Positions 10,720-33,820 of a stretch of 35,214 bases of DNA are shown piece after piece. Source of the DNA: Clostridiales bacterium. GTDB lineage: Bacteria > Bacillota > Clostridia > Christensenellales > Aristaeellaceae. The notes under the pieces are model-generated. The model was given only the letters and a program-made list of their open reading frames with translations, was not told the DNA's origin and did not search any database. Position 1 is the first letter of the stretch. Every line of letters starts with the position of its first letter. The stretch lies in NCBI GenBank assembly GCA_012729115.1, contig JAAYDR010000048.1, forward strand, positions 1 through 35,214, written 5' to 3'. The position numbers were made by a program, and so were the translations under genes.

Positions 10720-13700
10720 CTACGCTTCCCCGCCGTCCTTGTTTTCGGCATTCTGGTAGCGCTGGGTCCTGCTCACCCGACGGCCCTGGCTCACATCAGC
10801 TGTACTTCCCTGTCCAATGGGCTGGGCAAAGGGATTGCTTGATCTGGCTGTTTCACCGACAGGCTGGGTCATGCTTCCCGTTTTCTCTGCCCCCTGTCCC
10901 ACAGGACGGGCATAGGGGTTCTGGGCTCCCTGGCCGGCGGGAGGGGTGGGATTGCCAAAGACGCTTTGATTGCTGGGGGGTGGAGTCATCGGGGCCGATG
11001 GCGCCATCCCGGTTCCCGTGGGCTGAATGGGCCTGCTGTAGGGAGACTGTACGTTTCCCGGCGCCCTGGTTTGATTGGGCTGGTTTTGCTGGGTTCCTGC
11101 CACAGGCGGCGCGGCCACAGCCCTGCGGGTATAGGGACTCTGGGCGCCAGCTCCCTGAGGTTGCTTGTTCATGGTGCCTGCGGCCGCTCCGGCTGCGCCG
11201 GCCCGCCGATTGGCCGCGGCTGCCTTGGCGGCAGCTCTGCGCTTCTTGTTCTGACTCAGGGCATAAGCGTACACGCCGCCGGCCCCGCCGATGAGCACAA
11301 TCCCCGCGCCTATCAGGCCCCAGGGTACGGAATCGGTCTGGGTCTCCCTGCTCTCGTCGTCATAGGAAATCGGAATCATGGTGCCGATCACAAAGGTGGG
11401 GGTGGGCGTTAAGGTAGCCTCCGCTCCAATGCTGGGGATCGGCGTGGCATAGGGGTTGAAGGGTTCATAGCTGGCGTTCAGGCCCGCATTGGCATTGGGA
11501 TTTTGCCAAGTGCCCACATTCCAGTCCTCCATGGAAATGATTCCTGGGGTAGCAGAGCCTGTGGAGCCGCCGGAGCTGGATCCGCCCGAGCTGGATCCGC
11601 CGGAGGTGCCGGAGCCGCTGGAAGAGTTCTTGAGCCCCTGCAGGTATTCGTTGCTATTGAGGAAGCTGGAAAGCTCCGTGAGGTTCAGCACATGAATATA
11701 CTGCCCGTGTATCCAGCCAACGGTTCCCGCCTGGTTTACGTTGTACCAGGTCACACCGTTAACCTCCTTGCTGCCCAGCACCAGCATAAACGCGTATTGG
11801 CTCAGGGTCTTGATCTTGGTGCCATTGGGCGTCTGGCGGAAGTTAACGCTGGCGGTGGCGTAGGCGTAGCTGGACTTGGCATAGGGATCATAGGGCTGGG
11901 GAGTAACAGCGGCGGTAGGGGTGGGCTTGGGCTGGCTGTTCAGATAGGCCTGCACCTCCGCGTCGCTCATCTTGCGCATCTGGTCGATACGGATGTAGCC
12001 TGTCAGTCCGTTATAGGTGCTGATGTGCCAGCCGATGTCCTGGTTGTAGAGCTGCCCGCTGACATACACCACCGTGTCGATGGGCAGCCAGGCTTTGGCC
12101 TCCGCATACTGATCGGTAACATTGCGCATGGGCACGCTGTCGCCAATGGTGATGTAATACCCCGTCAACTGCGCGGGTACCTTGGTGGGAGTGGGACTGG
12201 GAGAAGGGGTGGGAGTAGCATGGTCCTTCTCATACTGGTCTATGATTGCCTGGGCTTCCTCATCGGAGATATGCCGAAGCGCGCTGTCCTGCACGATGCC
12301 GCTCTTGCGGTCCTCTCCCAGGCGCATCTGCGCACCGCTCCACAGGGTCGTCCCCTGGTTATACTGTCCGTTGATGTACAGCAGCGTATCCTTGGGCAGG
12401 GTGGCAATGATGGATTCATCCTTGTTGTTGGCATCCTTGCGAAGGGCGGTCTGGCTGATGGTGACAGCATAACCCATGTACATCTCGGTCTTTTTGTACC
12501 GGAAAACCACGGTGGCCGGGTCTGCCATGCCCTGGGCGCTCACAATTACCTCCACCGAGGGAACGCTACCCTCCGCCAGGGCATAGCCCTGGGGCACCAG
12601 ATTGTTATCCGGTGCAATGGTATGGGTGCCGGTGGCAAGAGCAATCTGCTGGGGAATGGCAATGGCCTTTCCTTCCGTGTCGATGTATTGCACGGTAACC
12701 GTGGCCGGCGGCGCGTCATAGCGGAAGATTACTTCCGCCGGGGTTGCAACGCCCTGGTCGTCCACTTGCACGGTTATGGAAGCCGGGGAATCCTTGGCCA
12801 GGGTGAAGCCCTTGGGGACGAGGGCGGGGTCCGGCGCAATGGGATGGCTGCCCTTTTCCAGTTGCATCTGCTGAGGCGCTGCCAGATCGCCGCCGATGGC
12901 ATTTCTGTAATAGACGGTCAGGATAGCCTTGTTCACAGGCTTTTCATAGAGGAAGATCACGGTGGCCGGGGTCGCCGTTCCATTGCTGTCCACAGTCACC
13001 TCCACGGAGGGAACGCTGGCCTGGGACAGCACATAGCCCTGGGGCACCAAAGACACATCCGGCGTCACAATGTTCTGCCCTTCAGGCAGGGTGAGGGTCT
13101 GGGCATCGGCAATGGTGGCGTTCAGTGTGTCCTTGTACTCCACAGTCACCGTTCCCGTTGCCTGAGGCCTGTCATAAAGAAAGGTCACCACTGCAGGGCT
13201 GGCAATCCCGTTGCTGTCCACGGTCACCTCCACGGAAGGAGTGCTGGCCTGTGACAGCACATAGCCCTGGGGTACCAAAGACGCATCCGGCTCTACGATG
13301 CTCTTCCCTTCGGGCAGGGTAAGGGTCTGGGTGTCCGCAATGGGGGCGTTCAGCGTGTCCTTGTATTCCACGGCCACGGTTCCCGTCACCTGAAGCTTTG
13401 TGTAGGTAAAGACCACAACGGCGGGATAGGCGTTACCCTGAGCGTCAATGGTCACCTCCACCCAGGTCGGGGTGCCTTCCTTGAGCACGTACCCCTGGGG
13501 CATGTCCGAGGGGGCGGGTTCCACCCGATGGGTTCCCTGCTCCTTCTCCACAGTTTGGGGGGTGCAGATGTCCTGATTGTTCTCGTTTACATAATGGATT
13601 TCAAAAGCACCCTTGGCGGCTGCCTTTTGCATCGCAAAGGTTACAAAACTGGGCGTAGCCGTGCCGTTTGCGGAGACCTCCACCATCACCCGGTCATCCC

Positions 13701-15162
13701 CAACGAGGGTATAGCCCGGCACAGCGCCCTGATTGGCAATGACCTCTGTGGTCGTGCCCACAGCGCAGATGACCGACTCCTGGTAAAGAACGGTGGCGGG
13801 ATTGTCCGCGTCCACATAGCTGACCACCACCTGGATCTCCATGGGCGGCTGGGTTTCTGTCCCGGGCACGGGGGTGCTTTGGGCGTAGTTATAGGCGTCG
13901 CTGTCCTCCTGGGAAAGCACGTCCACATAGTCCTGCACCACGTAGCAGTCAACGCCCTTGTAATTGATCTGATACCAGCTTTTTCCGTTGGCGTCGCCGG
14001 ATCCAATCACCCAGATATACGTATCCTTTTTTACATCAGAGGCAGCCTTTTTGCTGCTGGTGCTGGGTTCCGTACGGAAGTTCACCACGGCATTGGTTCT
14101 GCCGTAGCGCCCGATGGGAGAGATTACCAGTTCCGTGGCGGGCGGCTCGGTGTCCTCAGGAGGCTCGGTTTCCTGGGGAGGGTCGGTCTCCAAAGGTTGA
14201 TCCGTCTCCTGAGGCGGCTCGGTTTCCCGAGGCGGCTGGGTCTCCTCAGGCGGCTGGGTTTCTTCCTGCAGAATCTCCTTAAACTCGAAGTAGATGTCTG
14301 CGGGATTGGCCACACCCCAATCGTCCACCGTTACCTTATAGGAGGAGGGGCTTTCGGGACTCAGGGTATATCCTTCGGGCGTAAAGTCCGGGGTTACGTT
14401 ATGGGTGCCGGGATCCAGTTCCTTCCACTGAGGATCCGCAAGTTCCTCGCCATTGAGGCCAACGTAGTGAATGATGACTGCTCCCTTTACCGGTTCCGGG
14501 GCGGGGGCTGTAAAGGCAAAGACCACGGGGCTGGGATAGGCGCTGCCGTTCTGGTCCACGGTCACATACTGGCTGTCCTGGTCCACGGTATACCCCTGGG
14601 GAACCTTGCTCCAGTCCACGCTGACAATGTTGTCCTGGTCATAGGCACACAGGACCATGGTGGTATAAAAGGTCCCGTTCTGATCCTGGTACAGCACTTC
14701 CACCTGCACGGGAGGTACCTCAAGGGGTGTGGGCATGGGCAGGCTGGACAGGTACAGTTCATAGCCGCCCACCTCCACTCCATCCCGGTAGACGGTGATG
14801 GGGGTGCTGGTACCGCTGATAAAATCCACGGAGTCCACCGGGGACACCGGGGTGCCGTTGGCGGGGGTATAGGTGTAGGGGTCTCCCTGCAGGGGCAAAA
14901 TGTTCAGGATGATGGGGTAGGCAAAGGCCTCTGCCGGAAGGGTAGCCCAGTACACCGGGGTTTCCCCATTCAAAGAGGCCACGACCTGCAACACCTGGGG
15001 ACTATCCTCGGATACCTGATAATTGAGTTCCAGGATGGGCATACCGCTCAAATCCGGAGCAGCAGCGGCGCTGAAAGGCAGCGCGAACTGGACCAAGAGA
15101 AGCAGTGACACCATCGCCCAGGCGCCCAGGCGGCGAAGATTGCTAACGATGGATCGTCTCAT
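10720..15162 (-). CDS. Large surface protein with MucBP-like repeats, SH3 domains, membrane anchor and repetitive cytoplasmic tail
   Basis: A 1480-residue protein. Order: signal peptide (1-35, ending FSAAAAP); a unique N-terminal domain (to about 145); two MucBP-like repeats (145-297); a TQPPEE/TEPP-type linker (300-344); an SH3-like domain (344-425); six more MucBP-like repeats of about 75 residues (440-894), each with a GY-L core and an ATP/ASP-A-V-FxY end; three SH3-like domains (about 897-985, 995-1075, 1094-1170) joined by TPTPSPSP-type linkers; a Ser/Gly linker; a membrane helix (about 1277-1299); then an Arg/Ala-rich stretch and a Pro/Gln/Gly tail. There is no LPXTG motif. MucBP-like and bacterial SH3 domains are known in adhesins and cell-wall-binding proteins, so wall-spanning adhesion or sensing is inferred. 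AAGGAGGAAACTGT precedes the ATG. Confidence 0.88.
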   Translation of the reverse strand: MRRSIVSNLRRLGAWAMVSLLLLVQFALPFSAAAAPDLSGMPILELNYQVSEDSPQVLQVVASLNGETPVYWATLPAEAFAYPIILNILPLQGDPYTYTPANGTPVSPVDSVDFISGTSTPITVYRDGVEVGGYELYLSSLPMPTPLEVPPVQVEVLYQDQNGTFYTTMVLCAYDQDNIVSVDWSKVPQGYTVDQDSQYVTVDQNGSAYPSPVVFAFTAPAPEPVKGAVIIHYVGLNGEELADPQWKELDPGTHNVTPDFTPEGYTLSPESPSSYKVTVDDWGVANPADIYFEFKEILQEETQPPEETQPPRETEPPQETDQPLETDPPQETEPPEDTEPPATELVISPIGRYGRTNAVVNFRTEPSTSSKKAASDVKKDTYIWVIGSGDANGKSWYQINYKGVDCYVVQDYVDVLSQEDSDAYNYAQSTPVPGTETQPPMEIQVVVSYVDADNPATVLYQESVICAVGTTTEVIANQGAVPGYTLVGDDRVMVEVSANGTATPSFVTFAMQKAAAKGAFEIHYVNENNQDICTPQTVEKEQGTHRVEPAPSDMPQGYVLKEGTPTWVEVTIDAQGNAYPAVVVFTYTKLQVTGTVAVEYKDTLNAPIADTQTLTLPEGKSIVEPDASLVPQGYVLSQASTPSVEVTVDSNGIASPAVVTFLYDRPQATGTVTVEYKDTLNATIADAQTLTLPEGQNIVTPDVSLVPQGYVLSQASVPSVEVTVDSNGTATPATVIFLYEKPVNKAILTVYYRNAIGGDLAAPQQMQLEKGSHPIAPDPALVPKGFTLAKDSPASITVQVDDQGVATPAEVIFRYDAPPATVTVQYIDTEGKAIAIPQQIALATGTHTIAPDNNLVPQGYALAEGSVPSVEVIVSAQGMADPATVVFRYKKTEMYMGYAVTISQTALRKDANNKDESIIATLPKDTLLYINGQYNQGTTLWSGAQMRLGEDRKSGIVQDSALRHISDEEAQAIIDQYEKDHATPTPSPSPTPTKVPAQLTGYYITIGDSVPMRNVTDQYAEAKAWLPIDTVVYVSGQLYNQDIGWHISTYNGLTGYIRIDQMRKMSDAEVQAYLNSQPKPTPTAAVTPQPYDPYAKSSYAYATASVNFRQTPNGTKIKTLSQYAFMLVLGSKEVNGVTWYNVNQAGTVGWIHGQYIHVLNLTELSSFLNSNEYLQGLKNSSSGSGTSGGSSSGGSSSGGSTGSATPGIISMEDWNVGTWQNPNANAGLNASYEPFNPYATPIPSIGAEATLTPTPTFVIGTMIPISYDDESRETQTDSVPWGLIGAGIVLIGGAGGVYAYALSQNKKRRAAAKAAAANRRAGAAGAAAGTMNKQPQGAGAQSPYTRRAVAAPPVAGTQQNQPNQTRAPGNVQSPYSRPIQPTGTGMAPSAPMTPPPSNQSVFGNPTPPAGQGAQNPYARPVGQGAEKTGSMTQPVGETARSSNPFAQPIGQGSTADVSQGRRVSRTQRYQNAENKDGGEA
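12928..13383 (-). repeat. Tandem 228-bp duplication inside the surface-protein gene
   Basis: Two adjacent 76-codon units (13156-13383 and 12928-13155) encode nearly identical MucBP-like repeats, residues 594-669 and 670-745, both beginning GTV-VEYKDTLNA and sharing LVPQGYVLSQAS and VEVTVDSNG. The DNA is also very similar, unlike the other six repeats, which share only the protein pattern. This points to a recent duplication. Confidence 0.85.
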
Positions 15163-26551: not shown

Positions 26552-27019
26552 ATGAGAACATTGCCAACTCTCCATCATGTGCATGGGGGTGACTCCCTGT
26601 TGTTTTTCAATGACAAGACGGGCACGCTTACCTTTGAAACAAGCCTGTGCCTTACGCCCTTCATGATTCGCAGGGACCTGATGGCTGCGCTTCAGGATGC
26701 GGGAAGCACGATCCACGACCTGGACAAGTCCGATATCCTGCCCTTGCCCGCTTTCGCGGTGGAAGGAGGCACCCTCGCACCGGTGTGTTTTTTACTGAAT
26801 GACCGGTTGGTGGCGGTTACCTTGACGGCATCGTCTGTAGGGCAAAAAACTGCTCTTACCGGCGAGCAGCAGCGGGCTTTTCTGTTTGCCTCATTTCGGG
26901 CCAAGGACCCCTGTCCTGACACGCTTCGCAACTGCATCCTTCATGGCGGCTTTGGCTCCATTACCCTGTGCACGGACCCTCGCAGCGGTCATGCTTCCGC
27001 ACGGATCGCCTGGTCATAA
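26552..27019 (+). CDS. Unrecognised cytosolic protein, first gene of the coupling-ATPase module
   Basis: A 155-residue protein with no signal peptide or membrane helix. No family was recognised. Visible marks: LLFFNDKTGTLTFETSLCLTPFMIRRDLM near the start, a VCFLLNDRLVAVTL strand in the middle, and an HGGFGSITLC turn near the end; the mix of short strands and helices suggests one compact alpha+beta domain. The start at 26552 rather than 26519 is chosen from the promoter position, with GGAG and AAGG just upstream, though neither site is strong. It lies 48 bases before the next gene on the same strand. Confidence 0.7.
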   Translation: MRTLPTLHHVHGGDSLLFFNDKTGTLTFETSLCLTPFMIRRDLMAALQDAGSTIHDLDKSDILPLPAFAVEGGTLAPVCFLLNDRLVAVTLTASSVGQKTALTGEQQRAFLFASFRAKDPCPDTLRNCILHGGFGSITLCTDPRSGHASARIAWS

Positions 27020-27067
27020 AAGATCCGCCCGGTTTCTTGAACATATTCCGGTTAAGGAGTGAACTAC

Positions 27068-27655
27068 GTGCAGGCGGCTTTGATCCCTATTATGCGTGAT
27101 TACCTGGTCCGTTTTCAACAGACCGCCATCAAGGAAACAGGGCGCAGGCCCTTGACATTCCTTAGATCCCCCATGGACGAAAAACTGGTGCTCCCCGGAT
27201 GCCAGCGTCCCGGGTATGCCTTTTGGCAGCCGATTCCCTGGAAGGACGGCAATCCGCCCCTGGGGGAGGCTTCCGCCCTGTTTCATTCCACCATCATTGA
27301 CTATCTCTCCATGTGTCAGTTTCTGGAAATCCGCTTCCGGCTCCCTGTCGCTCCCCTGAACAGCCCCCTCTCCTTTCTTTACAACCGTATTTTTGAAACC
27401 TACAAAAACACCGAAAACGCTCCCCCCTCCCGAGCCTTTGAGGAGGCCAGACTCTACCACAAGGAACATCCTGAACTTCCCCTCAACTACTGCATGGCCG
27501 CTACCTGCGATGCCGGGCCTGCCCTGCTGCTCAGTCTCCGGGCAGAGGACGGCCAAGCTTTCATCACCCGTGTAGACAGCGACGCTGACCCCCTGTATCT
27601 GAAACTCACCGTGGACCGGCTCCTGCCTAAGCTCAAATTCGTATACGATTTCTAG
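27068..27655 (+). CDS. Unrecognised cytosolic protein, second gene of the coupling-ATPase module
   Basis: A 195-residue soluble protein with no known motif that I can recognise. It begins at GTG 27068, eight bases after AAGGAG; the GTG at 27059 overlaps that site. Features: a helical N-terminus (IPIMRDYLVRFQQTAIKE), a central FHSTIIDYLSMCQFLEIRF helix, a proline-rich LPVAPLNSPLSFLYN, and a strand-rich C-terminus ending KLKFVYDF. The 651-residue gene follows after 40 bases, so it is in the same operon and may be a partner of the ATPase. Confidence 0.75.
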   Translation: MQAALIPIMRDYLVRFQQTAIKETGRRPLTFLRSPMDEKLVLPGCQRPGYAFWQPIPWKDGNPPLGEASALFHSTIIDYLSMCQFLEIRFRLPVAPLNSPLSFLYNRIFETYKNTENAPPSRAFEEARLYHKEHPELPLNYCMAATCDAGPALLLSLRAEDGQAFITRVDSDADPLYLKLTVDRLLPKLKFVYDF

Positions 27656-27695
27656 ATCTGTTCACAGAGAAAGCAAGAAAGGAAGCCTCAGTCTC

Positions 27696-29651
27696 ATGCT
27701 AGAAACCGCAAGGCAAAACAGCATTGTAAGCTATGCCGGCCTGTCCAAGCCCGCTTTGCTGAGCCTTGCCAAACAAGCCTTTGCCCAAGCGGATGACGAG
27801 GTGCCGGAGCGGTTTGTTTTCTTCCTACCGCTGTTTCCCTTTGAACTGATCCAGAATATGAACTATCTGGGGAACGTCCCCGTCCCTTCCCCAAAAGTGT
27901 CTCCCCTTGGCTTTTCCAGGGATCCCCAGGAATACCATGCCAAAATGTACCGCCAGTTTCCGGATTTGTACCAGGGCGATAACTACCGCCGCAACTTCGA
28001 CTATGAGGGCCGCTTTACAGGCCGGGGCGTATTTACCGTAGATCCTGCCTGGATAGCCCGCTTCCCCCAGTTTGCCCCCTTTGCCGGAGAAAAGCTGATG
28101 ATCTACCTGATCGGGGACGGTCCACAGGCCGTTGCCCTGCCCGAGAGCATCTACCCCCGGGGAGGCAAGTTTTTAGCTGCCCTGGAGCATCGCCTGCAGA
28201 TTACCGGGCGGGTGGAGCAGTTTGTCCACTATCTCAAAGGCCGTGTCTCAGGCGGTGATGTGTATGACCCGGATCTCATCGGTCAGGAGTACCTGGCTCT
28301 GACCGGCCTATCCCCTGTGATGCTGCGCCAAAGCGAACTGAACCGAATGCTGCAGGATCTGAGCATCGCCCGGGCCCAGCAAAACGACACCACGGCCGCA
28401 GGCCTTTTTACCGAAAGCGCGAAAAGGGCGGAAAACCTTTGCCAGTATGTGCCTTATCTCTACGCTTGCGACACCTTTGAGCCCACGTCGGTGACCAAGC
28501 ATACGGCTCGTCTGTTTCAGCCTGCCTTTAAAGATTTTGACTTTATCAGCAACCTTTGGATCCCCTATCAGGACCTGGTTGGCTATGTGAACCGGGAAAC
28601 CATGACCGTGAACATGCAGCGGCTCTGCGAAGGCTATCAGATCGCCCCGATATACGATCCGCTCACAGGGGGCGGGCGCTATCCCGACATGCTGCGGGGA
28701 CTCATTGTCCGGGACCGGGACATTCCCATGCTGATGGGGGATGTGTTGAACAACCCTGCCTATGGTAGCGGCATGAACCCCCTGGGAATGATCGGGAAAC
28801 AGGTTTTCATCCCGGAAAGCCGGGAATTGATTCGTCAGAGAAAGCTGGCCATGGAGCCGTTGGACTTTGAGGTGGAAAACACGCAGCTCTCTGCAGAGGC
28901 TTACCAACACGCCATGATGCGCAGCGCCCTGCAGGAATACAAGGGGAATCTTGTGGACGCCATGTATTGCCGGGAGGCGACTCTATCACAAATCCCCGAA
29001 GAAACCCACGCTTATGAAACCGCCAAGGCTTCTCTGGACAGGAAAGTGGCCCAAAAGCAAAAACAGGTGGACACAGCCGGAGAGCGCTGGAAGCACTGCC
29101 AGGTCAGTGGCTATGACGCGGACATCGACTATCTGCGGCGCAAGCAGCACTCACGGGAGGGCATGCCCCAGGAGGATAAGCAACCGCCTATGCCTTTTGC
29201 TGTGGACCCCCAGCGGGAGCAGAGCATTGAAAGCGGTTATACCATGCGCAACAATGCTCAGCGGCTATCCTATCCGGAGGCAATGATAACACCGCCAGAG
29301 GCACCCACTTTACCGCTGAAGGTGCGATGTGAAGCGCCCCCCTCCCCGGAAACAGCCAGGAATGCATCCCAGAGCAGCGCCCGGAAGCCGACCCCTGAAA
29401 ACGAGACCGATAACACCGCCCAGGCATCCCAAGACAGTCCGGACTCCTCCCAGGCCGAAATTCCCCCCCGTACCCCAGCCTCATTTCAGTCCCTGTCTGA
29501 GAAACTGCTGTACAAACAAATCGATCCCACAGCCCCCAAGCTGGCCAGCATCGTACGCCGGGAAAGCGAAGCCCGGGTCCAGGTGGAGAACAAGGATGGC
29601 AAGATGGCCTCTTTAAAGGAGGGCACGGCATGCAACAAAAAAGTGTACTGA
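27696..29651 (+). CDS. Unrecognised 651-residue protein, third gene of the coupling-ATPase module
   Basis: A large soluble protein without signal peptide or membrane helix. Residues 1-430 appear folded and aromatic-rich, with FVFFLPLFPFELIQNMNYL near residue 40, a FDYEGRFTGRGVFTVD stretch near 110 and MLMGDVLNNPAYGSGMNPLGMIG near 345. Residues about 438-470 are a charged helix, possibly coiled coil. Residues about 485-620 are a Pro/Ser/Thr/Glu-rich, probably disordered tail, followed by a more ordered C-terminal helix (LSEKLLYKQIDPTAPKLASIV). No family was recognised. The gene overlaps the ATPase start by 22 bases, so translation is coupled and the two proteins probably act together. AAAGGAAG lies about ten bases before the ATG. 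Confidence 0.8.
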   Translation: MLETARQNSIVSYAGLSKPALLSLAKQAFAQADDEVPERFVFFLPLFPFELIQNMNYLGNVPVPSPKVSPLGFSRDPQEYHAKMYRQFPDLYQGDNYRRNFDYEGRFTGRGVFTVDPAWIARFPQFAPFAGEKLMIYLIGDGPQAVALPESIYPRGGKFLAALEHRLQITGRVEQFVHYLKGRVSGGDVYDPDLIGQEYLALTGLSPVMLRQSELNRMLQDLSIARAQQNDTTAAGLFTESAKRAENLCQYVPYLYACDTFEPTSVTKHTARLFQPAFKDFDFISNLWIPYQDLVGYVNRETMTVNMQRLCEGYQIAPIYDPLTGGGRYPDMLRGLIVRDRDIPMLMGDVLNNPAYGSGMNPLGMIGKQVFIPESRELIRQRKLAMEPLDFEVENTQLSAEAYQHAMMRSALQEYKGNLVDAMYCREATLSQIPEETHAYETAKASLDRKVAQKQKQVDTAGERWKHCQVSGYDADIDYLRRKQHSREGMPQEDKQPPMPFAVDPQREQSIESGYTMRNNAQRLSYPEAMITPPEAPTLPLKVRCEAPPSPETARNASQSSARKPTPENETDNTAQASQDSPDSSQAEIPPRTPASFQSLSEKLLYKQIDPTAPKLASIVRRESEARVQVENKDGKMASLKEGTACNKKVY

Positions 29652-30928
29652 AAGGAATGCAAATCTCCCGCACCATCCCCTATCGGGACCCTGATGCCCT
29701 CTTTGCTCTGGCCGGTACGGACGGCAACGGACAAAACGCCTACCTGCCCATTGGCGACAGTATGTTAAGCCGACATATGCTTTTACTGGGTGCTCCCGGC
29801 ACAGGCAAGAGCAACCTGATGTCCCACTTCCTGCGCAATATCCGCGCCAACCTAACCCAGACCGATGTTCTGGTCGCCCTGGATCCTGCCGGAGAATACT
29901 ATAAGGCTTTCTACCAGCCGGGGGATATTGTCTTTTCCAATGACATCCGTTCCAGCGGTGAAGCAGGGGAGGCCTACTGGAACCTGTATTCGGAGCTTTG
30001 TGAGGATGACAAGGTCATTGAGGACGCCTCCTTCCTGTGCGACCTGCTGTTTGGTGAACACATCCGGGGGACAGCGGAACCCTTCTATGCCAATGCCGCC
30101 CGCGATCTTTTCATGGCCCTGATCGTATACCTGCGCCGGAGAGGCGATAAGGAACTACAAAACAACCTGGCCCTGCGTGAACTTCTCGACGGCTTTGACT
30201 TTGAAAGCATGCGCTCCATCCTGGAGCAGGAGCCGGACCTGCGCGCCCTGGCCTCCTACCTGAGCAAGCCGGACAGCCCTGAAACCCTGGGTGTTGTGGC
30301 CGCCTTGCAGCAAGCCGCCAGAGAACTTCTGCAAGGCTGCTTCTGCCAGGATGGATCACTGGGCATGCGCCCTTTGATCAGGGCCAAGGGCGGCAAGGTA
30401 ATCTTCGTATGCTATGATCCTTCCCACGGCAACATGCTTCGCCCCTTGTATGCTGCGCTCATTGATCTGTGCATGCAGGAAGCCCTCAGCCGCAAGGAGA
30501 ATGAAGGAAGCGTGTACCTGCTGCTGGACGGCATCGCGGCCTTCCCGCCCTTTCCCCACCTGGAGGATGCCCTGCTGCTGGGCAGAAGCAGGGGCCTGAA
30601 GATTATCCTGTCCGCCATGAGCGTCAGCCAGCTGCAAAACCGCTACGGCTCTGCGGTTACCCAAAGCCTGGTCTGCTCCTTTGGTACCACCGTGGTGTTC
30701 CGCCTCCACGACCGGCTCAGCCGGGATTTCGTGAAGGGTCTCTATGGCCGCCACCGGGTGGTGGAAAGCTTTGCATCCACCGTACAGATACGCAACATCA
30801 TTGAACAGGTAATGGACCAATACATTATTGAGGATGAGGACATTACCGCCCTTCAGACCCTCGAATGCCTCATCGCCACCATGCATTACCCACCCTTCTG
30901 GTTCCGCCTCAGGCCTTATGGCGGGTAA
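29630..30928 (+). CDS. VirD4/TraG-like coupling ATPase without membrane domain
   Basis: A 432-residue P-loop ATPase. Walker A is GAPGTGKSN (54-62); DPAGEYYKAF (85-94) and AYWNLYSEL match the DPKGE and WNP-like segments of type IV coupling proteins; Walker B is VYLLLDGIA (295-303); LGRSRGLKIILSAMSVSQLQNRYG (318-340) corresponds to the sensor and arginine region with Q-x-Q-L-x-x-YG. The usual Walker B glutamate after Asp300 is Gly301. Coupling proteins pump DNA or protein substrates through type IV secretion channels; most have N-terminal membrane helices, absent here. AAGGAGG seven bases before ATG 29630 fixes the start. No relaxase or VirB genes are nearby. HerA/FtsK-type relatives are the main alternative. 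Confidence 0.85.
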   Translation: MQQKSVLKGMQISRTIPYRDPDALFALAGTDGNGQNAYLPIGDSMLSRHMLLLGAPGTGKSNLMSHFLRNIRANLTQTDVLVALDPAGEYYKAFYQPGDIVFSNDIRSSGEAGEAYWNLYSELCEDDKVIEDASFLCDLLFGEHIRGTAEPFYANAARDLFMALIVYLRRRGDKELQNNLALRELLDGFDFESMRSILEQEPDLRALASYLSKPDSPETLGVVAALQQAARELLQGCFCQDGSLGMRPLIRAKGGKVIFVCYDPSHGNMLRPLYAALIDLCMQEALSRKENEGSVYLLLDGIAAFPPFPHLEDALLLGRSRGLKIILSAMSVSQLQNRYGSAVTQSLVCSFGTTVVFRLHDRLSRDFVKGLYGRHRVVESFASTVQIRNIIEQVMDQYIIEDEDITALQTLECLIATMHYPPFWFRLRPYGG

Positions 30929-30952: not shown

Positions 30953-31684
30953 ATGAATATCACCCCCAGGGACATTGCCAAAATGCTGGATCACAGCACC
31001 TTACAACCCGACTTGACCCAGGAGGACATCCGCAAGGGCTGCGAAATTGCCCTTGCATACGGCACCGCCAGCGTCTGCGCCCGCCCCGGGGACATCCCCC
31101 TGGTGACGCAGTTGCTCCAGGGAAGCGACGTAAAGGTCTGCACGGTGATTGGCTTTCCTCATGGCAACCACAAGCCCGAGATCAAACTGGCCGAGGCCCG
31201 CATTGCATTGGAGGACGGCTGCCAGGAACTGGACATGGTTCTGAACATCGGCAGGCTCATTGCCGGCGATACCGCTTATGTTCAGGATGAAATCCAGGCC
31301 ATATGCGACCTGGCCCATAGCCGGGATACAAAGGTGAAGGTGATCCTGGAAACCTGTTACCTCACCGACGAGCAAAAGAAGCTGGCATGCGGGCTCTGCG
31401 CCCAGGCAGGGGCAGACTGGGTAAAAACCAGCACCGGCTATGGCTCTGGCGGCTGTACCCTCCACGACCTGCGCCTGATGCGCGCTTGTGTGCCCCCCAG
31501 TGTGCAAGTGAAGGGATCCGGCGGCATCCGGGATCTGGATACCGTATTGGCAGCCCGGGTCATCGGAGCCAGCCGCTGCGGTGTTTCCGCCACCCGGAAG
31601 ATTATGGAGGAAGCCAAGAAGCGTTATGCGGAGGGTACATTGACAGAACCCATGGATTTAAAAGAAATGGAGGGCGGGTACTGA
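30953..31684 (+). CDS. deoC: Deoxyribose-phosphate aldolase
   Basis: A 243-residue class I aldolase splitting 2-deoxyribose 5-phosphate into glyceraldehyde 3-phosphate and acetaldehyde in nucleoside breakdown. The Schiff-base lysine is Lys158 in WVKTSTGYG; other conserved blocks are MLDHSTLQPD, VIGFPHG, ELDMVLNIG with an active-site Asp, KVILETCYL and VKGSGGIRD. Length is typical. AAAGGAGG lies close to the ATG. It follows the ATPase gene by 24 bases with no promoter or terminator between them, so it is probably read from the same message, which is an unusual neighbour for it. Confidence 0.96.
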   Translation: MNITPRDIAKMLDHSTLQPDLTQEDIRKGCEIALAYGTASVCARPGDIPLVTQLLQGSDVKVCTVIGFPHGNHKPEIKLAEARIALEDGCQELDMVLNIGRLIAGDTAYVQDEIQAICDLAHSRDTKVKVILETCYLTDEQKKLACGLCAQAGADWVKTSTGYGSGGCTLHDLRLMRACVPPSVQVKGSGGIRDLDTVLAARVIGASRCGVSATRKIMEEAKKRYAEGTLTEPMDLKEMEGGY

Positions 31685-31763: not shown

Positions 31764-32957
31764 TTATGCGTTGTCACCCTTGAAAATCTGAATCGTCAGC
31801 ACACCCCGGCCGTCGCTCTCCGCCAGAATGCGGATGGGAAAATCATAGTCATTGCGGAAAACCAGGTTCAGGTTGACATTTCCCACTGCCGCGTCCGTGT
31901 GCTGAGGCAGATATCTGGCGCTACCCGGGCCGTGGGGGCGGCGGTAGAGAATCGAGATTCCCGGCAGCTGACGGATGGTATTGTACAGCGTGCTGCTGCT
32001 TTGGCAGGTGCCGCCGCCGTAACCCAGCTGTGTGCCTCCGTCAATCAGTACCGGCGCAGGGAAATATCCGTTGGATTTCTTGTAGGGGCCTATCTGGGCA
32101 TTAAAATCCAGCTGTTCTCCAGGCTGCATCACCCGGGTCATCAGTTCGCAGCTGCGTACGATGTTCTTGCAGCGGCCTTCATTGCCCTCCGCCCCGGTAT
32201 TGTAAGCAAAGTAACTGGAAAATGCCGCGATGGGGGTTTGGGAGCTCATGGGATCAATGGTGGGGGCCACCACGGTCATGTTGGTGAGCAACCGCGCGTC
32301 CACATATCCATAGCCGCGCCAATAGTAGATTTTTGCGAATCCGTTCACAAACTCAATGATCGCGATCCTATTCCCCTTGCCAAGGATGATGGGGTTGATC
32401 TCCTCGCTGACTCTGGGAGCCTGATAGACATAGGCATCCTCAGTCAGGGTGGCCACATAGCTCATGGGCATGACTCCATAGGGGGGAGTGGTAGAAGGGT
32501 CCAGCACCGTGCAGTTCTCGTCAATGCAGGTTCTCAGCACGTAGCCCACCGTGCCCTCATACTCCACCAGCACAAAGGATGGATACACCTTATAGATGGT
32601 GACCTCTTTCCCCTTGCCCACCTGACCCAGGACCTGGCTGTCCGTATCCTGGGCATAGCGGATGCTGGCAACGTTACCGGTGGCGGTCATCAGCTTGATT
32701 TTGGTCCGGTACAAAGGAGACAAACCCTGGATGCTGGGCGACCCCATATCGTTTTCATCCGCCACGGATACCGCCTGCTCATCGTCTACAGGCAGGTCCT
32801 CCTCAGCGACGCCCTCGTCAATGGCCTCCTGGATCAGCGTTTTTTCTTCGGCAGGAGCCGCCACATCCTGGGCGGCATCCTCTGCGCCTGCCGCTATGAA
32901 CGGCAGGATCATGATACAAAAAAGCAATATGGCAACCAGGCGTCTCAACCCTGTCAT
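31764..32957 (-). CDS. Exported VanW-family protein with SH3-like domains
   Basis: A 397-residue secreted protein. Order: signal peptide (residues 1-25, hydrophobic core LVAILLFCIMILPFIAAGA), acidic linker (to about 70), two SH3-like domains (about 75-155 and 160-235, with YAQDTDSQVLGQVGKGKEVTIY and AYVYQAPRVSEEINPIILGKG), then a VanW domain (about 245-390): MQPGEQLDFNAQIGPY, GGGTCQSSSTLYN, VFRNDYDFPIRI. VanW proteins occur in some vancomycin-resistance clusters and in many wall-associated proteins; function is unproven. The ATG at 32957 is chosen because the GTG at 32969 lies too close to AAGGGG. Three genes away is a glycan hydrolase. Confidence 0.88.
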   Translation of the reverse strand: MTGLRRLVAILLFCIMILPFIAAGAEDAAQDVAAPAEEKTLIQEAIDEGVAEEDLPVDDEQAVSVADENDMGSPSIQGLSPLYRTKIKLMTATGNVASIRYAQDTDSQVLGQVGKGKEVTIYKVYPSFVLVEYEGTVGYVLRTCIDENCTVLDPSTTPPYGVMPMSYVATLTEDAYVYQAPRVSEEINPIILGKGNRIAIIEFVNGFAKIYYWRGYGYVDARLLTNMTVVAPTIDPMSSQTPIAAFSSYFAYNTGAEGNEGRCKNIVRSCELMTRVMQPGEQLDFNAQIGPYKKSNGYFPAPVLIDGGTQLGYGGGTCQSSSTLYNTIRQLPGISILYRRPHGPGSARYLPQHTDAAVGNVNLNLVFRNDYDFPIRILAESDGRGVLTIQIFKGDNA

Positions 32958-33032
32958 CCCGCGTGTCACCCCTTATGGCACAGTGGACCCCGCAAGGCCG
33001 CCGCAAAAAGCGTGAATCTTCGGAGCGGTTCC

Positions 33033-33115: not shown

Positions 33116-33820
33116 CTAGCGGACGCCCTCTTCGCCCACTGTCACGGTGTTGCTAAGGATATCGGCAAAGCCCTTGCTTTGGTATCCCTCCACCAACAGC
33201 GCGGCCTCGTACATCTTTCCCAGTTCCATGCCCAGGCTTTCCCACGCCTTCATGTGCTCGCTGACAGAGATGGTTCCGCTGGCGCGCTTGGAGGTACGCA
33301 CGCTCCAGTACTGCTGAAAGGTGGCGGTGCCTTTGATAGAGGGCTGATTCGTACGGGTGGTTTCATAGATGTCATAAGTTCCGCCGTCCACGGTAATGCT
33401 GCCCTTGAGCGCCGCTCCCGGCGGACGCCAGTTCCCCCAGCTGTCCACCACGTAGTATTCCACAAGGGGATCGGAGGTCCATCCATACACACACAGATAG
33501 GAATTGCCCTCCGGACGGTAGTCGCAGTCATAGGTGACGGATATGTCCCCAAGCTCCTGGTATGTCTTTGTCTCATCAAATTTGATGCCCTTGCGGAACA
33601 GCGCGTTGTTGATGTCGCTCCAGGTGCAGCTGAACGTGCCGCCTTCCTTAAGAGTCATGCTGGTTGTGCCTGAATCCTTCCACAGCTCATAATCAAATCC
33701 GTCATGGGTACCCAGCTCATTCCCGGTGATGGTTTTTTTCGCCTCCGCTCCTTGCGCGACGGGAACGCACGCCGCAAGGGCAAGCATTATCACGAAAAGC
33801 ATGCTTAGCTTCCTTTTCAT
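33116..33820 (-). CDS. Endo-1,4-beta-xylanase, glycoside hydrolase family 11
   Basis: A 234-residue exported protein. After the signal peptide comes a single GH11 beta-jelly-roll domain: [40 protein letters not shown] with nucleophile Glu121, the thumb [24 protein letters not shown], and [11 protein letters not shown] with acid/base Glu211. It hydrolyses internal bonds of xylan. No carbohydrate-binding module is present. The leader contains LAAC (Cys18), a good lipobox, and an alternative VAQGAEA cut site, so it may be membrane-tethered rather than free. AAAGGAGAAG precedes the ATG; the metallopeptidase gene is 42 bases upstream on the same strand. Confidence 0.93.

What the first reader, a model, noticed from the sequence alone, without database searches (positions are those of the whole stretch)
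26552..30928. Orphan coupling-ATPase module with three unknown partner proteins
Four plus-strand genes form a tight operon: 155 aa, 195 aa and 651 aa proteins with no recognisable family, then a VirD4/TraG-like ATPase. Gaps are 48, 40 and -22 bases. None has a signal peptide or membrane helix. Housekeeping genes flank the block (glmM, deoC), and there is no relaxase, VirB4, integrase, repeat or tRNA insertion site. This argues against a conjugative element and for a resident chromosomal machine that uses a type IV coupling fold for something else, such as DNA handling, defence, or cytosolic protein sorting. That function is inference.
Basis: partly seen in the sequence, partly recalled or inferred. 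Interest (0 to 1): 0.82.

Follow-up and report, generated by a model that had tools for sequence, protein, structure and literature searches.

The report
Domesticated toxin, antidote and motor operon
A four-gene operon in an uncultured Clostridia genus looks like an old bacterial toxin, its antidote and a loading motor whose key catalytic residues have been lost, yet the toxin-derived gene was found in all 17 genomes of the genus that were searched, so it has probably been put to a new use inside the cell.

Summary
The operon is real at the stated coordinates and gaps, but it is not three unknowns plus a motor. Orf3 carries a Tox-HNH-HHH nuclease domain (Pfam, above cut-off). Orf2 folds like Syd, with an HNH-toxin immunity protein as second structural hit. 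Orf4 is a soluble TrwB-type ATPase. Orf1 stays unassigned.

A second copy in a sister-genus genome has a fuller layout: PH-like membrane protein, orf2-like gene, HNH toxin with intact histidines, ATPase with intact Walker-B Glu. At the window-type locus, each of 19 orf3 proteins keeps at most one of the five motif histidines (the window none). The Walker-B Glu is gone in 11 of 11 ATPases, but kept in 13 of 13 outside the clade. The membrane protein is absent from all 21 fetched loci.

Orf3 is nevertheless in 17 of 17 genomes of the genus. ATPase-less members fall in four places on the tree, and a short C-terminal motif of orf3's disordered tail goes with the ATPase (9 of 9 with it, 0 of 10 without). 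That suggests tail recognition, as in type IV coupling.

Best reading: a domesticated, apparently catalytically dead toxin–immunity complex serving as a cytosolic scaffold. Its actual job is untested.

The parts
26552..27019 (+). orf1, 155 aa, no known family; fast-evolving (27-43% identity to relatives); ends in a conserved FG..DP.TG motif
   Evidence: found next to orf2 in 19 of 20 named loci (the 20th, L069, begins 376 bases before orf2)
27068..27655 (+). orf2, 195 aa (GTG start), Syd-like fold, probably derived from a SUKH-type immunity protein; slowest-evolving of the four
   Evidence: AF2 model pLDDT 80.8; Foldseek top hit Syd 3ffv E 3.2e-6, TM 0.68/0.73, second RhsPI 8bd1_B E 0.052; dN/dS
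27696..29651 (+). orf3, 651 aa: degenerate HNH toxin domain, second conserved domain, helical part, disordered tail
27894..28166 (+). HNH-HHH-like domain of orf3 (residues 67-157); none of the five motif histidines of the paralogue is left here (HHH>IYL, SVH>SIY, last H>A)
28749..28772 (+). NNPAYGSG motif (residues 352-359) of the second conserved domain; NNP-YG-G in 19 of 19 and in the paralogue orf3'
29250..29648 (+). low-complexity, presumably disordered tail of orf3 (from residue 519), variable in length across relatives
29604..29615 (+). C-terminal tail motif MASL (residues 637-640); M[TAS]x[LM] type, found in the last 30 residues only where the ATPase is present
29630..30928 (+). soluble TrwB/TraD-type ATPase, 432 aa
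29789..29812 (+). Walker A of the ATPase, GAPGTGKS, intact
30512..30535 (+). Walker B region of the ATPase, VYLLLDGI: Asp kept, catalytic Glu replaced by Gly
30953..31684 (+). deoC, 24 bases downstream; follows the operon in 13 of 19 genomes (in a further MAG, L075, it is fused in frame to orf3)

Best explanation
The operon is a domesticated descendant of a cassette that encoded an HNH nuclease toxin with a long disordered tail (orf3), its Syd/SUKH-type immunity protein (orf2) and a soluble coupling-type ATPase that recognises the tail (orf4). In the lineage leading to this genus and its sister genus the nuclease lost its active-site histidines, the ATPase lost its Walker-B Glu and the PH-like membrane partner was dropped; orf1-orf2-orf3 then became fixed. 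I propose that orf2 stays bound to the dead HNH domain as an immunity protein would, that this complex is a stable cytosolic scaffold, and that short motifs in the tail decide what it docks to: the ATPase (M[TAS]x[LM] at the C terminus) in about half of the genus, and in many relatives possibly the DNA sliding clamp (QLxLF-like motif). Shown by computation: the domain and fold assignments, the loss of catalytic residues, conservation, the scattered absence of the ATPase and the motif-ATPase covariation. Inferred: loss of activity, vertical descent, the orf2-orf3 complex, ATPase docking, clamp docking, and any cellular role.
For: Tox-HNH-HHH in 20 of 20 orf3 proteins. Against the paralogue L050, three of the five motif histidines are lost in 19 of 19 orf3 proteins, one is kept in 6 and one in 4, and no protein keeps more than one; an Rhs-type HHH toxin (L099) aligns with L050's histidines. 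Syd fold for orf2 with an HNH-toxin immunity protein as second hit. The paralogue operon L050 in G072 holds a ZnR-PH gene, an orf2-like gene (orf2 HMM, E 5e-10), orf3' with HHH and ATPase' with DE. Walker-B Glu lost in 11 of 11 of a 100/100-supported clade, kept in 13 of 13 outside. A SUKH-1 gene sits before a GHH-like toxin gene and the ATPase in L092. Purifying selection: orf2 dN/dS 0.10-0.14 in the four closest pairs, deoC 0.09-0.16 in its five closest. Tail motif in 9 of 9 ATPase+ against 0 of 10 ATPase-, with ATPase-less members in four places on the tree.
Against: No Pfam match links orf2 to Syd or SUKH by sequence in 21 members. Loss of the Walker-B Glu does not prove loss of ATPase activity; 5 of the 11 have Asp there. 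Ten of 19 orf3 proteins still keep one motif histidine. The second domain of orf3 keeps an NNPxYGxG motif shared with the paralogue and may be an active enzyme. The clamp-like motif is absent from the window's own tail, from the two complete sister-clade tails (L058, L074) and from L057, so clamp docking cannot be the general role. The M motif was defined on the same sequences it was counted in, and L052/L053, which fall in the same unresolved group of the ATPase tree as L050, L089 and the window clade, lack it. No known fold matches the orf3 model. orf1 is unexplained and weakly constrained. Many dS values are near saturation. The gene tree was not compared with a species tree.
Confidence: 0.65

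Rival explanations
1. It is still a working antibacterial effector module: the second, unassigned domain of orf3 is the toxic part, orf2 is its immunity protein and the ATPase loads it into an unknown exporter.
For: The NNPxYGxG region is conserved in 19 of 19 and in the paralogue; immunity-type partner; coupling-type ATPase with a covarying tail motif.
Against: orf3 persists in 9 of 17 genomes without the ATPase; no PH-like membrane partner in any of 21 fetched loci; orf2 evolves nearly as slowly as deoC, whereas immunity genes usually diverge fast (general knowledge); HNH site degraded.
Confidence: 0.18
2. Orphan immunity: orf2 is kept to neutralise HNH toxins of competitors, and the dead orf3 is a carrier or decoy.
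For: Syd-like fold with an immunity protein as second hit; an Rhs-borne Tox-HNH-HHH toxin exists in another Clostridia genome.
Against: The folded part of orf3 beyond the HNH domain is also conserved; orf2 is uniformly conserved (mean column identity 79%).
Confidence: 0.08
3. An anti-phage defence module with a HerA/Mad8-like motor.
For: PADLOC Mad8 profile matches the ATPase at 2.9e-15, and several HerA profiles match it more weakly; nuclease-like plus motor is a common defence layout (general knowledge).
Against: The other three proteins have no PADLOC match; genus-wide presence is unlike patchy defence genes; both catalytic sites look degraded.
Confidence: 0.05
4. Remnant of an integrated conjugative element.
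For: TrwB-type ATPase.
Against: No relaxase, VirB or integrase family among the 19 window proteins scanned with Pfam, apart from the coupling-protein families of the ATPase itself (not every ORF was scanned); no CD1110-type VirB4 in the own genome; several relatives of the ATPase neighbour toxin-like genes.
Confidence: 0.02

Closest known systems
Tox-HNH-HHH polymorphic toxins (PF15637), e.g. Rhs-borne
   Same: HNH-HHH domain, aligned with an Rhs-type toxin
   Different: Motif histidines lost; the domain lies at the N terminus, not the C terminus; no Rhs or other trafficking domain found
Syd / SUKH-type immunity proteins (Syd 3ffv, RhsPI 8bd1)
   Same: Fold, gene next to an HNH-toxin-derived gene
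   Different: No sequence-level family match; strongly conserved across the genus
TrwB/VirD4 type IV coupling proteins (1e9r)
   Same: Match over the TrwB_AAD_bind profile and to TrwB chains; a C-terminal tail motif covaries with the ATPase, as substrates of VirD4 carry C-terminal recognition regions (PMC6536674, passages read)
   Different: No N-terminal membrane helices, no VirB partners found, Walker-B Glu lost
Xanthomonas-type bacteria-killing T4SS
   Same: Logic: coupling ATPase, effector with C-terminal recognition region, immunity protein (PMC6536674, passages)
   Different: VirB proteins not found; the signal proposed here is a short motif in a low-complexity tail; the effector appears dead
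Exported alarmone synthetase beside TrwB in Streptomyces (PMC12691689, passages read)
   Same: Effector gene near a TrwB gene in a Gram-positive
   Different: There TrwK and TrwI are also reported; here no CD1110-type VirB4 in the own genome

Membership tests
Polymorphic toxin-immunity system | Recognised toxin domain | tested here: met
   PF15637 above cut-off; 20 of 20 members match
Polymorphic toxin-immunity system | Intact motif histidines of the toxin domain | tested here: not met
   at most one of five kept in each of 19, none in the window
Polymorphic toxin-immunity system | Immunity gene next to toxin gene | tested here: met
   Syd-like orf2, 40 bases upstream; fold only, function untested
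Polymorphic toxin-immunity system | N-terminal trafficking domain and C-terminal toxin | tested here: not met
   toxin domain at residues 67-157, no trafficking domain found
Type IV coupling protein (TrwB/TraD) | TrwB_AAD_bind domain | tested here: met
   E 2.6e-38; PDB 1e9r/1gl6 E 2.5e-27
Type IV coupling protein (TrwB/TraD) | Walker A, and Walker B with Glu | tested here: not met
   Walker A present, Walker-B Glu lost in 11 of 11
Type IV coupling protein (TrwB/TraD) | N-terminal membrane helices | tested here: not met
   maximum hydropathy 1.14 over 19 residues
Conjugative element / T4SS | VirB4 in the genome | tested here: not met
   CD1110 VirB4 model: no match in own genome; over cut-off in 2 of 14 genomes, below it in 4 more, two of these (G029, G072) being the ATPase itself; other VirB4 types not tested
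Conjugative element / T4SS | Relaxase in the genome | not tested
   only the window proteins scanned were looked at
T7SS effector locus | EssC ATPase | tested here: not met
   0 of 14 genomes over the TIGR03928 cut-off; all 14 have weaker matches over parts of the model, read as FtsK-type ATPases
Syd/SUKH superfamily | Fold | tested here: met
   3ffv E 3.2e-6, prob 1.00; that Syd belongs to SUKH is recalled
Syd/SUKH superfamily | Sequence profile match | tested here: not met
   no Syd or SUKH Pfam match in 21 members (limit E 10, but HMMER's filters drop most above 0.1)
MADS defence (Mad8) | Other MADS genes in the operon | tested here: not met
   only the ATPase matches, 4 proteins scanned
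Beta-clamp client | QLxLF-like motif | tested here: inconclusive
   12 of 21 tails, shuffle mean 0.04, maximum 2, but absent in the window tail; consensus from PMC4549789 (passages); binding untested

The most novel reading that the evidence does not exclude
The live relatives of this operon define an undescribed effector-handling machine of Gram-positive bacteria: a soluble TrwB-like ATPase, a PH-like membrane protein with zinc ribbons, and toxin-like cargo (HNH or HExxH proteins) tagged by long low-complexity tails, in one case with a SUKH-1 immunity gene, working without EssC (0 of 14 genomes over cut-off) and mostly without a CD1110-type VirB4 (2 of 14). The window shows the same machine turned into an apparently non-catalytic cellular scaffold that became core to a genus, with a tail-motif code that changes when the motor is lost.
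Probability: 0.32. Interest if true: 0.86.

Novelty: new variant of a known kind. Interest (0 to 1): 0.64.

Why it matters
Polymorphic toxins and their immunity proteins are usually seen as weapons that turn over fast. Here a toxin, its antidote and a motor appear catalytically dead, yet the toxin-derived gene is kept by a whole genus, which would be a clear bacterial case of toxin exaptation. The live relatives point to a coupling ATPase that serves toxin-like cargo without a consistent type IV or type VII secretion motor that I could find, and the tail motif that covaries with the ATPase gives a directly testable recognition signal.

Tried and rejected
TNT (NADase) nature of the second orf3 domain: suggested by eye from GQQV-like letters in L050, but there was no Pfam match and no structural match; dropped. 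A PF14021 search gave two TNT loci among 60 genomes that I did not compare further. T7SS as exporter: EssC model over cut-off in 0 of 14 genomes. Viral, plasmid or phage origin: no match for orf2 in viral contigs and plasmids, for a middle part of L050's orf3' in plasmids, or for orf3 in phages. The first genome-contig scan with orf3 found nothing; the scan with the orf2 alignment found 20 loci. A phylum-wide ATPase search at E 1e-40 found only the own genome among 398, so the family is rare or patchy. Of 702 plasmid records with an ATPase match, 626 are typed conjugative and the commonest genera are Gram-negative; I looked at three records. Clamp binding as the general role: rejected because the window, L057, L058 and L074 lack the motif. 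MADS membership: only Mad8 matches. The tail-motif shuffles ignore relatedness, and for L050 and L089 also tandem duplication, and the motif was defined after seeing the tails; the tree is the better argument.

Rows left out or doubtful: L059 and L060 were left out of the 9-against-10 count because their orf3 runs off the contig (in G008 and G072 the ATPase lies on another contig). L072 has only a fragment of orf3 and is in no tail count; L047, an unnamed locus, was added. L075, an orf3-deoC fusion without an own tail, is counted among the 10 without ATPase. The Walker-B table holds 24 ATPases; L094 (two pieces), L095 and L096 were not put in. Several ATPase-less genomes are incomplete (65-87% for five of the nine). 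My notebook entry overstates how many genomes of the genus lack the PH-like protein; one search shows 9 of 11.
Full report
Observation. GC content (56.7% in the operon, 57.3% and 57.2% on either side) and third-position GC (0.63-0.70, against 0.72-0.74 in gyrA, glmM and deoC) give little sign of recent import. Two tRNA genes lie about 4 kb downstream, not at the operon's edge. The 20 named loci fetched with orf2 are uncultured MAGs, nearly all labelled Clostridia, Clostridiales or Eubacteriales, two of them Candidatus Limiplasma (taxonomy).

What the parts are. ATPase: TrwB_AAD_bind, E 2.6e-38; closest solved chains TrwB 1e9r/1gl6, E 2.5e-27. Orf3: Tox-HNH-HHH at residues 67-157, in 20 of 20 members of its alignment. 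Orf2: AF2 model with pLDDT 80.8 (the other four models 69-70); the best structural match is Syd (3ffv, E 3.2e-6, prob 1.00), the second the RhsPI immunity protein of an Rhs toxin (8bd1_B, E 0.052, prob 0.97). No sequence family finds it. Orf1: nothing. The orf3 model of residues 1-535 is confident (pLDDT 84.2) but matches no PDB or viral model at E 0.001; its HNH part does not show up there either.

Distribution. At E 0.001 orf3 is in 19 of 150 genomes: all 17 of the genus and two of genus g14. The ATPase is in 8 of the 17. In 7 of the 9 genomes without it, orf3 is followed directly by deoC on the same contig, so the absence there is not an assembly gap; the other two are G004 (65% complete) and G009. 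deoC follows the operon in 13 of the 19 genomes; in G003, G004, G006 and G009 something else follows, and G008 and G015 end at contig edges. On the orf2+orf3 tree the ATPase-less rows fall in four places: L064/L067/L068/L069/L070, L066, L073/L076 and L075. I read these as losses because the paralogue and both main branches have the ATPase.

Live relatives. ATPase relatives occur at E 1e-25 in 9 of 391 genomes of the class including the own, at 35-39% identity on Paenibacillus and Curtobacterium plasmids, and in no phage record. In several, the gene just before the ATPase encodes a globular head plus a low-complexity tail: Tox-GHH by Pfam in L052 and L053, GHH-like by eye in L092, HExxH by eye in L055, L089, L093 and L096 (also in L053's cargo), and the HHH toxin in L050. 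The HExxH proteins of L055, L093 and L096 have no Pfam match; that of L089 was not scanned. L054 has a 245-aa gene of unknown kind there, next to a gene with a below-cut-off match to an SPN immunity factor. In L086 the gene before the ATPase is the PH-like one and the tail protein comes after it. L092 has a SUKH-1 gene (E 1.1e-12) before the toxin-like gene. The PH-like protein (PH fold and two hydrophobic stretches by eye, Pfam bPH_3 only at 0.078 in L054; zinc ribbons in most) is found in 9 of 16 such loci (8 of them made the profile; L050 is the independent one) and in 0 of the 21 fetched loci of the window clade, some of which are short. In whole genomes, 9 of 11 of the genus lack it; G014 has one on another contig (E 5.9e-41) and G016 a partial match.

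Degeneration. In L050, in the same genome (G072) as a window-type locus, the operon is fuller and its catalytic residues are intact. Of the five motif histidines of L050, three are lost in 19 of 19 window-clade orf3 proteins, one is kept in 6 and one in 4; no protein keeps more than one and nine, the window among them, keep none. L099, an Rhs-type toxin, shows the same histidines as L050. The Walker-B Glu is lost in 11 of 11 of a clade with 100/100 support on a long stem (0.92 changes per site) and kept in 13 of 13 outside. Yet the genes are under constraint: the pairs with lowest dS give dN/dS 0.25 (orf1, one pair), 0.10-0.14 (orf2, four), 0.10-0.32 (folded part of orf3, six listed) and 0.11-0.51 (ATPase, six listed), against 0.09-0.29 for deoC (six listed); medians over pairs with dS under 1.5 are 0.55, 0.24, 0.39, 0.29 and 0.16. 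Orf1 is the least constrained, and many dS values are near saturation.

Tail motifs. The last 30 residues of orf3 hold M[TAS]x[LM] in 9 of 9 proteins with the ATPase and 0 of 10 without it; 5000 shuffles reached at most 2 in the first group. The pattern was written after seeing the tails. A similar M-centred motif (wider pattern) is repeated 6 times in L050 and 10 times in L089, whose ATPases fall in the same unresolved group as the window clade; L052 and L053 fall there too and lack it in their last 60 residues, as do seven other cargo proteins. I read it as the ATPase's recognition signal, with a code that drifts between lineages; that is inference. A beta-clamp-like pentapeptide is in 12 of 21 tails (shuffle mean 0.04, maximum 2), in both ATPase+ and ATPase- genomes, but not in the window, L057, L058 or L074. 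The clamp consensus comes from PMC4549789 (passages).

Mechanism proposed. Orf2 holds the dead HNH domain, the complex is a stable scaffold, and the tail recruits partners. The retained NNPxYGxG domain (19 of 19 and L050) could be where a remaining activity sits. Adjacency to deoC, including one in-frame orf3-deoC fusion (L075), hints at deoxynucleotide or DNA metabolism but is weak.

Novelty. Searches of the open-access library for coupling ATPases with toxins and immunity proteins listed no paper whose title or abstract start describes this arrangement. PMC3482391 (passages) names type IV systems as a toxin route, and the words VirD4 and coupling do not occur in its held text; PMC12691689 (passages) reports a Streptomyces effector gene that co-occurs with TrwB, TrwK and TrwI. 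Passages of PMC6536674 and PMC4549789 were also read; other papers were seen only as search listings. The library omits most subscription journals, so absence here is weak evidence. That Syd belongs to the SUKH superfamily, and the general statements on how immunity and defence genes evolve, are recalled.

Noticed in passing
L075:8616-10922: orf3 and deoC are fused in one reading frame in this MAG, with no own tail and no ATPase on the stretch; real fusion or lost stop codon not settled.
   Followed up: partly
G072:C36 (L050): Fuller, apparently live operon (PH-like protein, orf2-like gene, HHH nuclease with 6 tail motifs, ATPase, and by eye a zinc-ribbon protein) in the same genome as a degenerate window-type copy.
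   Followed up: yes
L089:7204-9339: HExxH protein with a tail holding ten copies of an FSMDEMAQ-like repeat, directly before a TrwB-like ATPase.
   Followed up: partly
L093:4621-7287 and L096:9205-11676: The TrwB-like ATPase is followed at once by a second gene of about 390-430 aa that looks to the eye like a degenerate ATPase partner; no Pfam match above cut-off.
   Followed up: no
G014:C30 (L119:9126-9902): A genome of the genus carries a PH-like protein gene and a zinc-ribbon gene without a nearby ATPase, orf2 or orf3 match.
   Followed up: partly
window 33116-33820: GH11 family (xylanase) protein on the minus strand, beside a VanW/SH3 protein (31764-32969).
   Followed up: no
window 10720-15162: 1480-aa minus-strand protein with MucBP and SH3 domains, a likely surface protein.
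   Followed up: no
L099 (G215): Rhs-type protein ending in a canonical Tox-HNH-HHH domain, useful as the active reference.
   Followed up: yes
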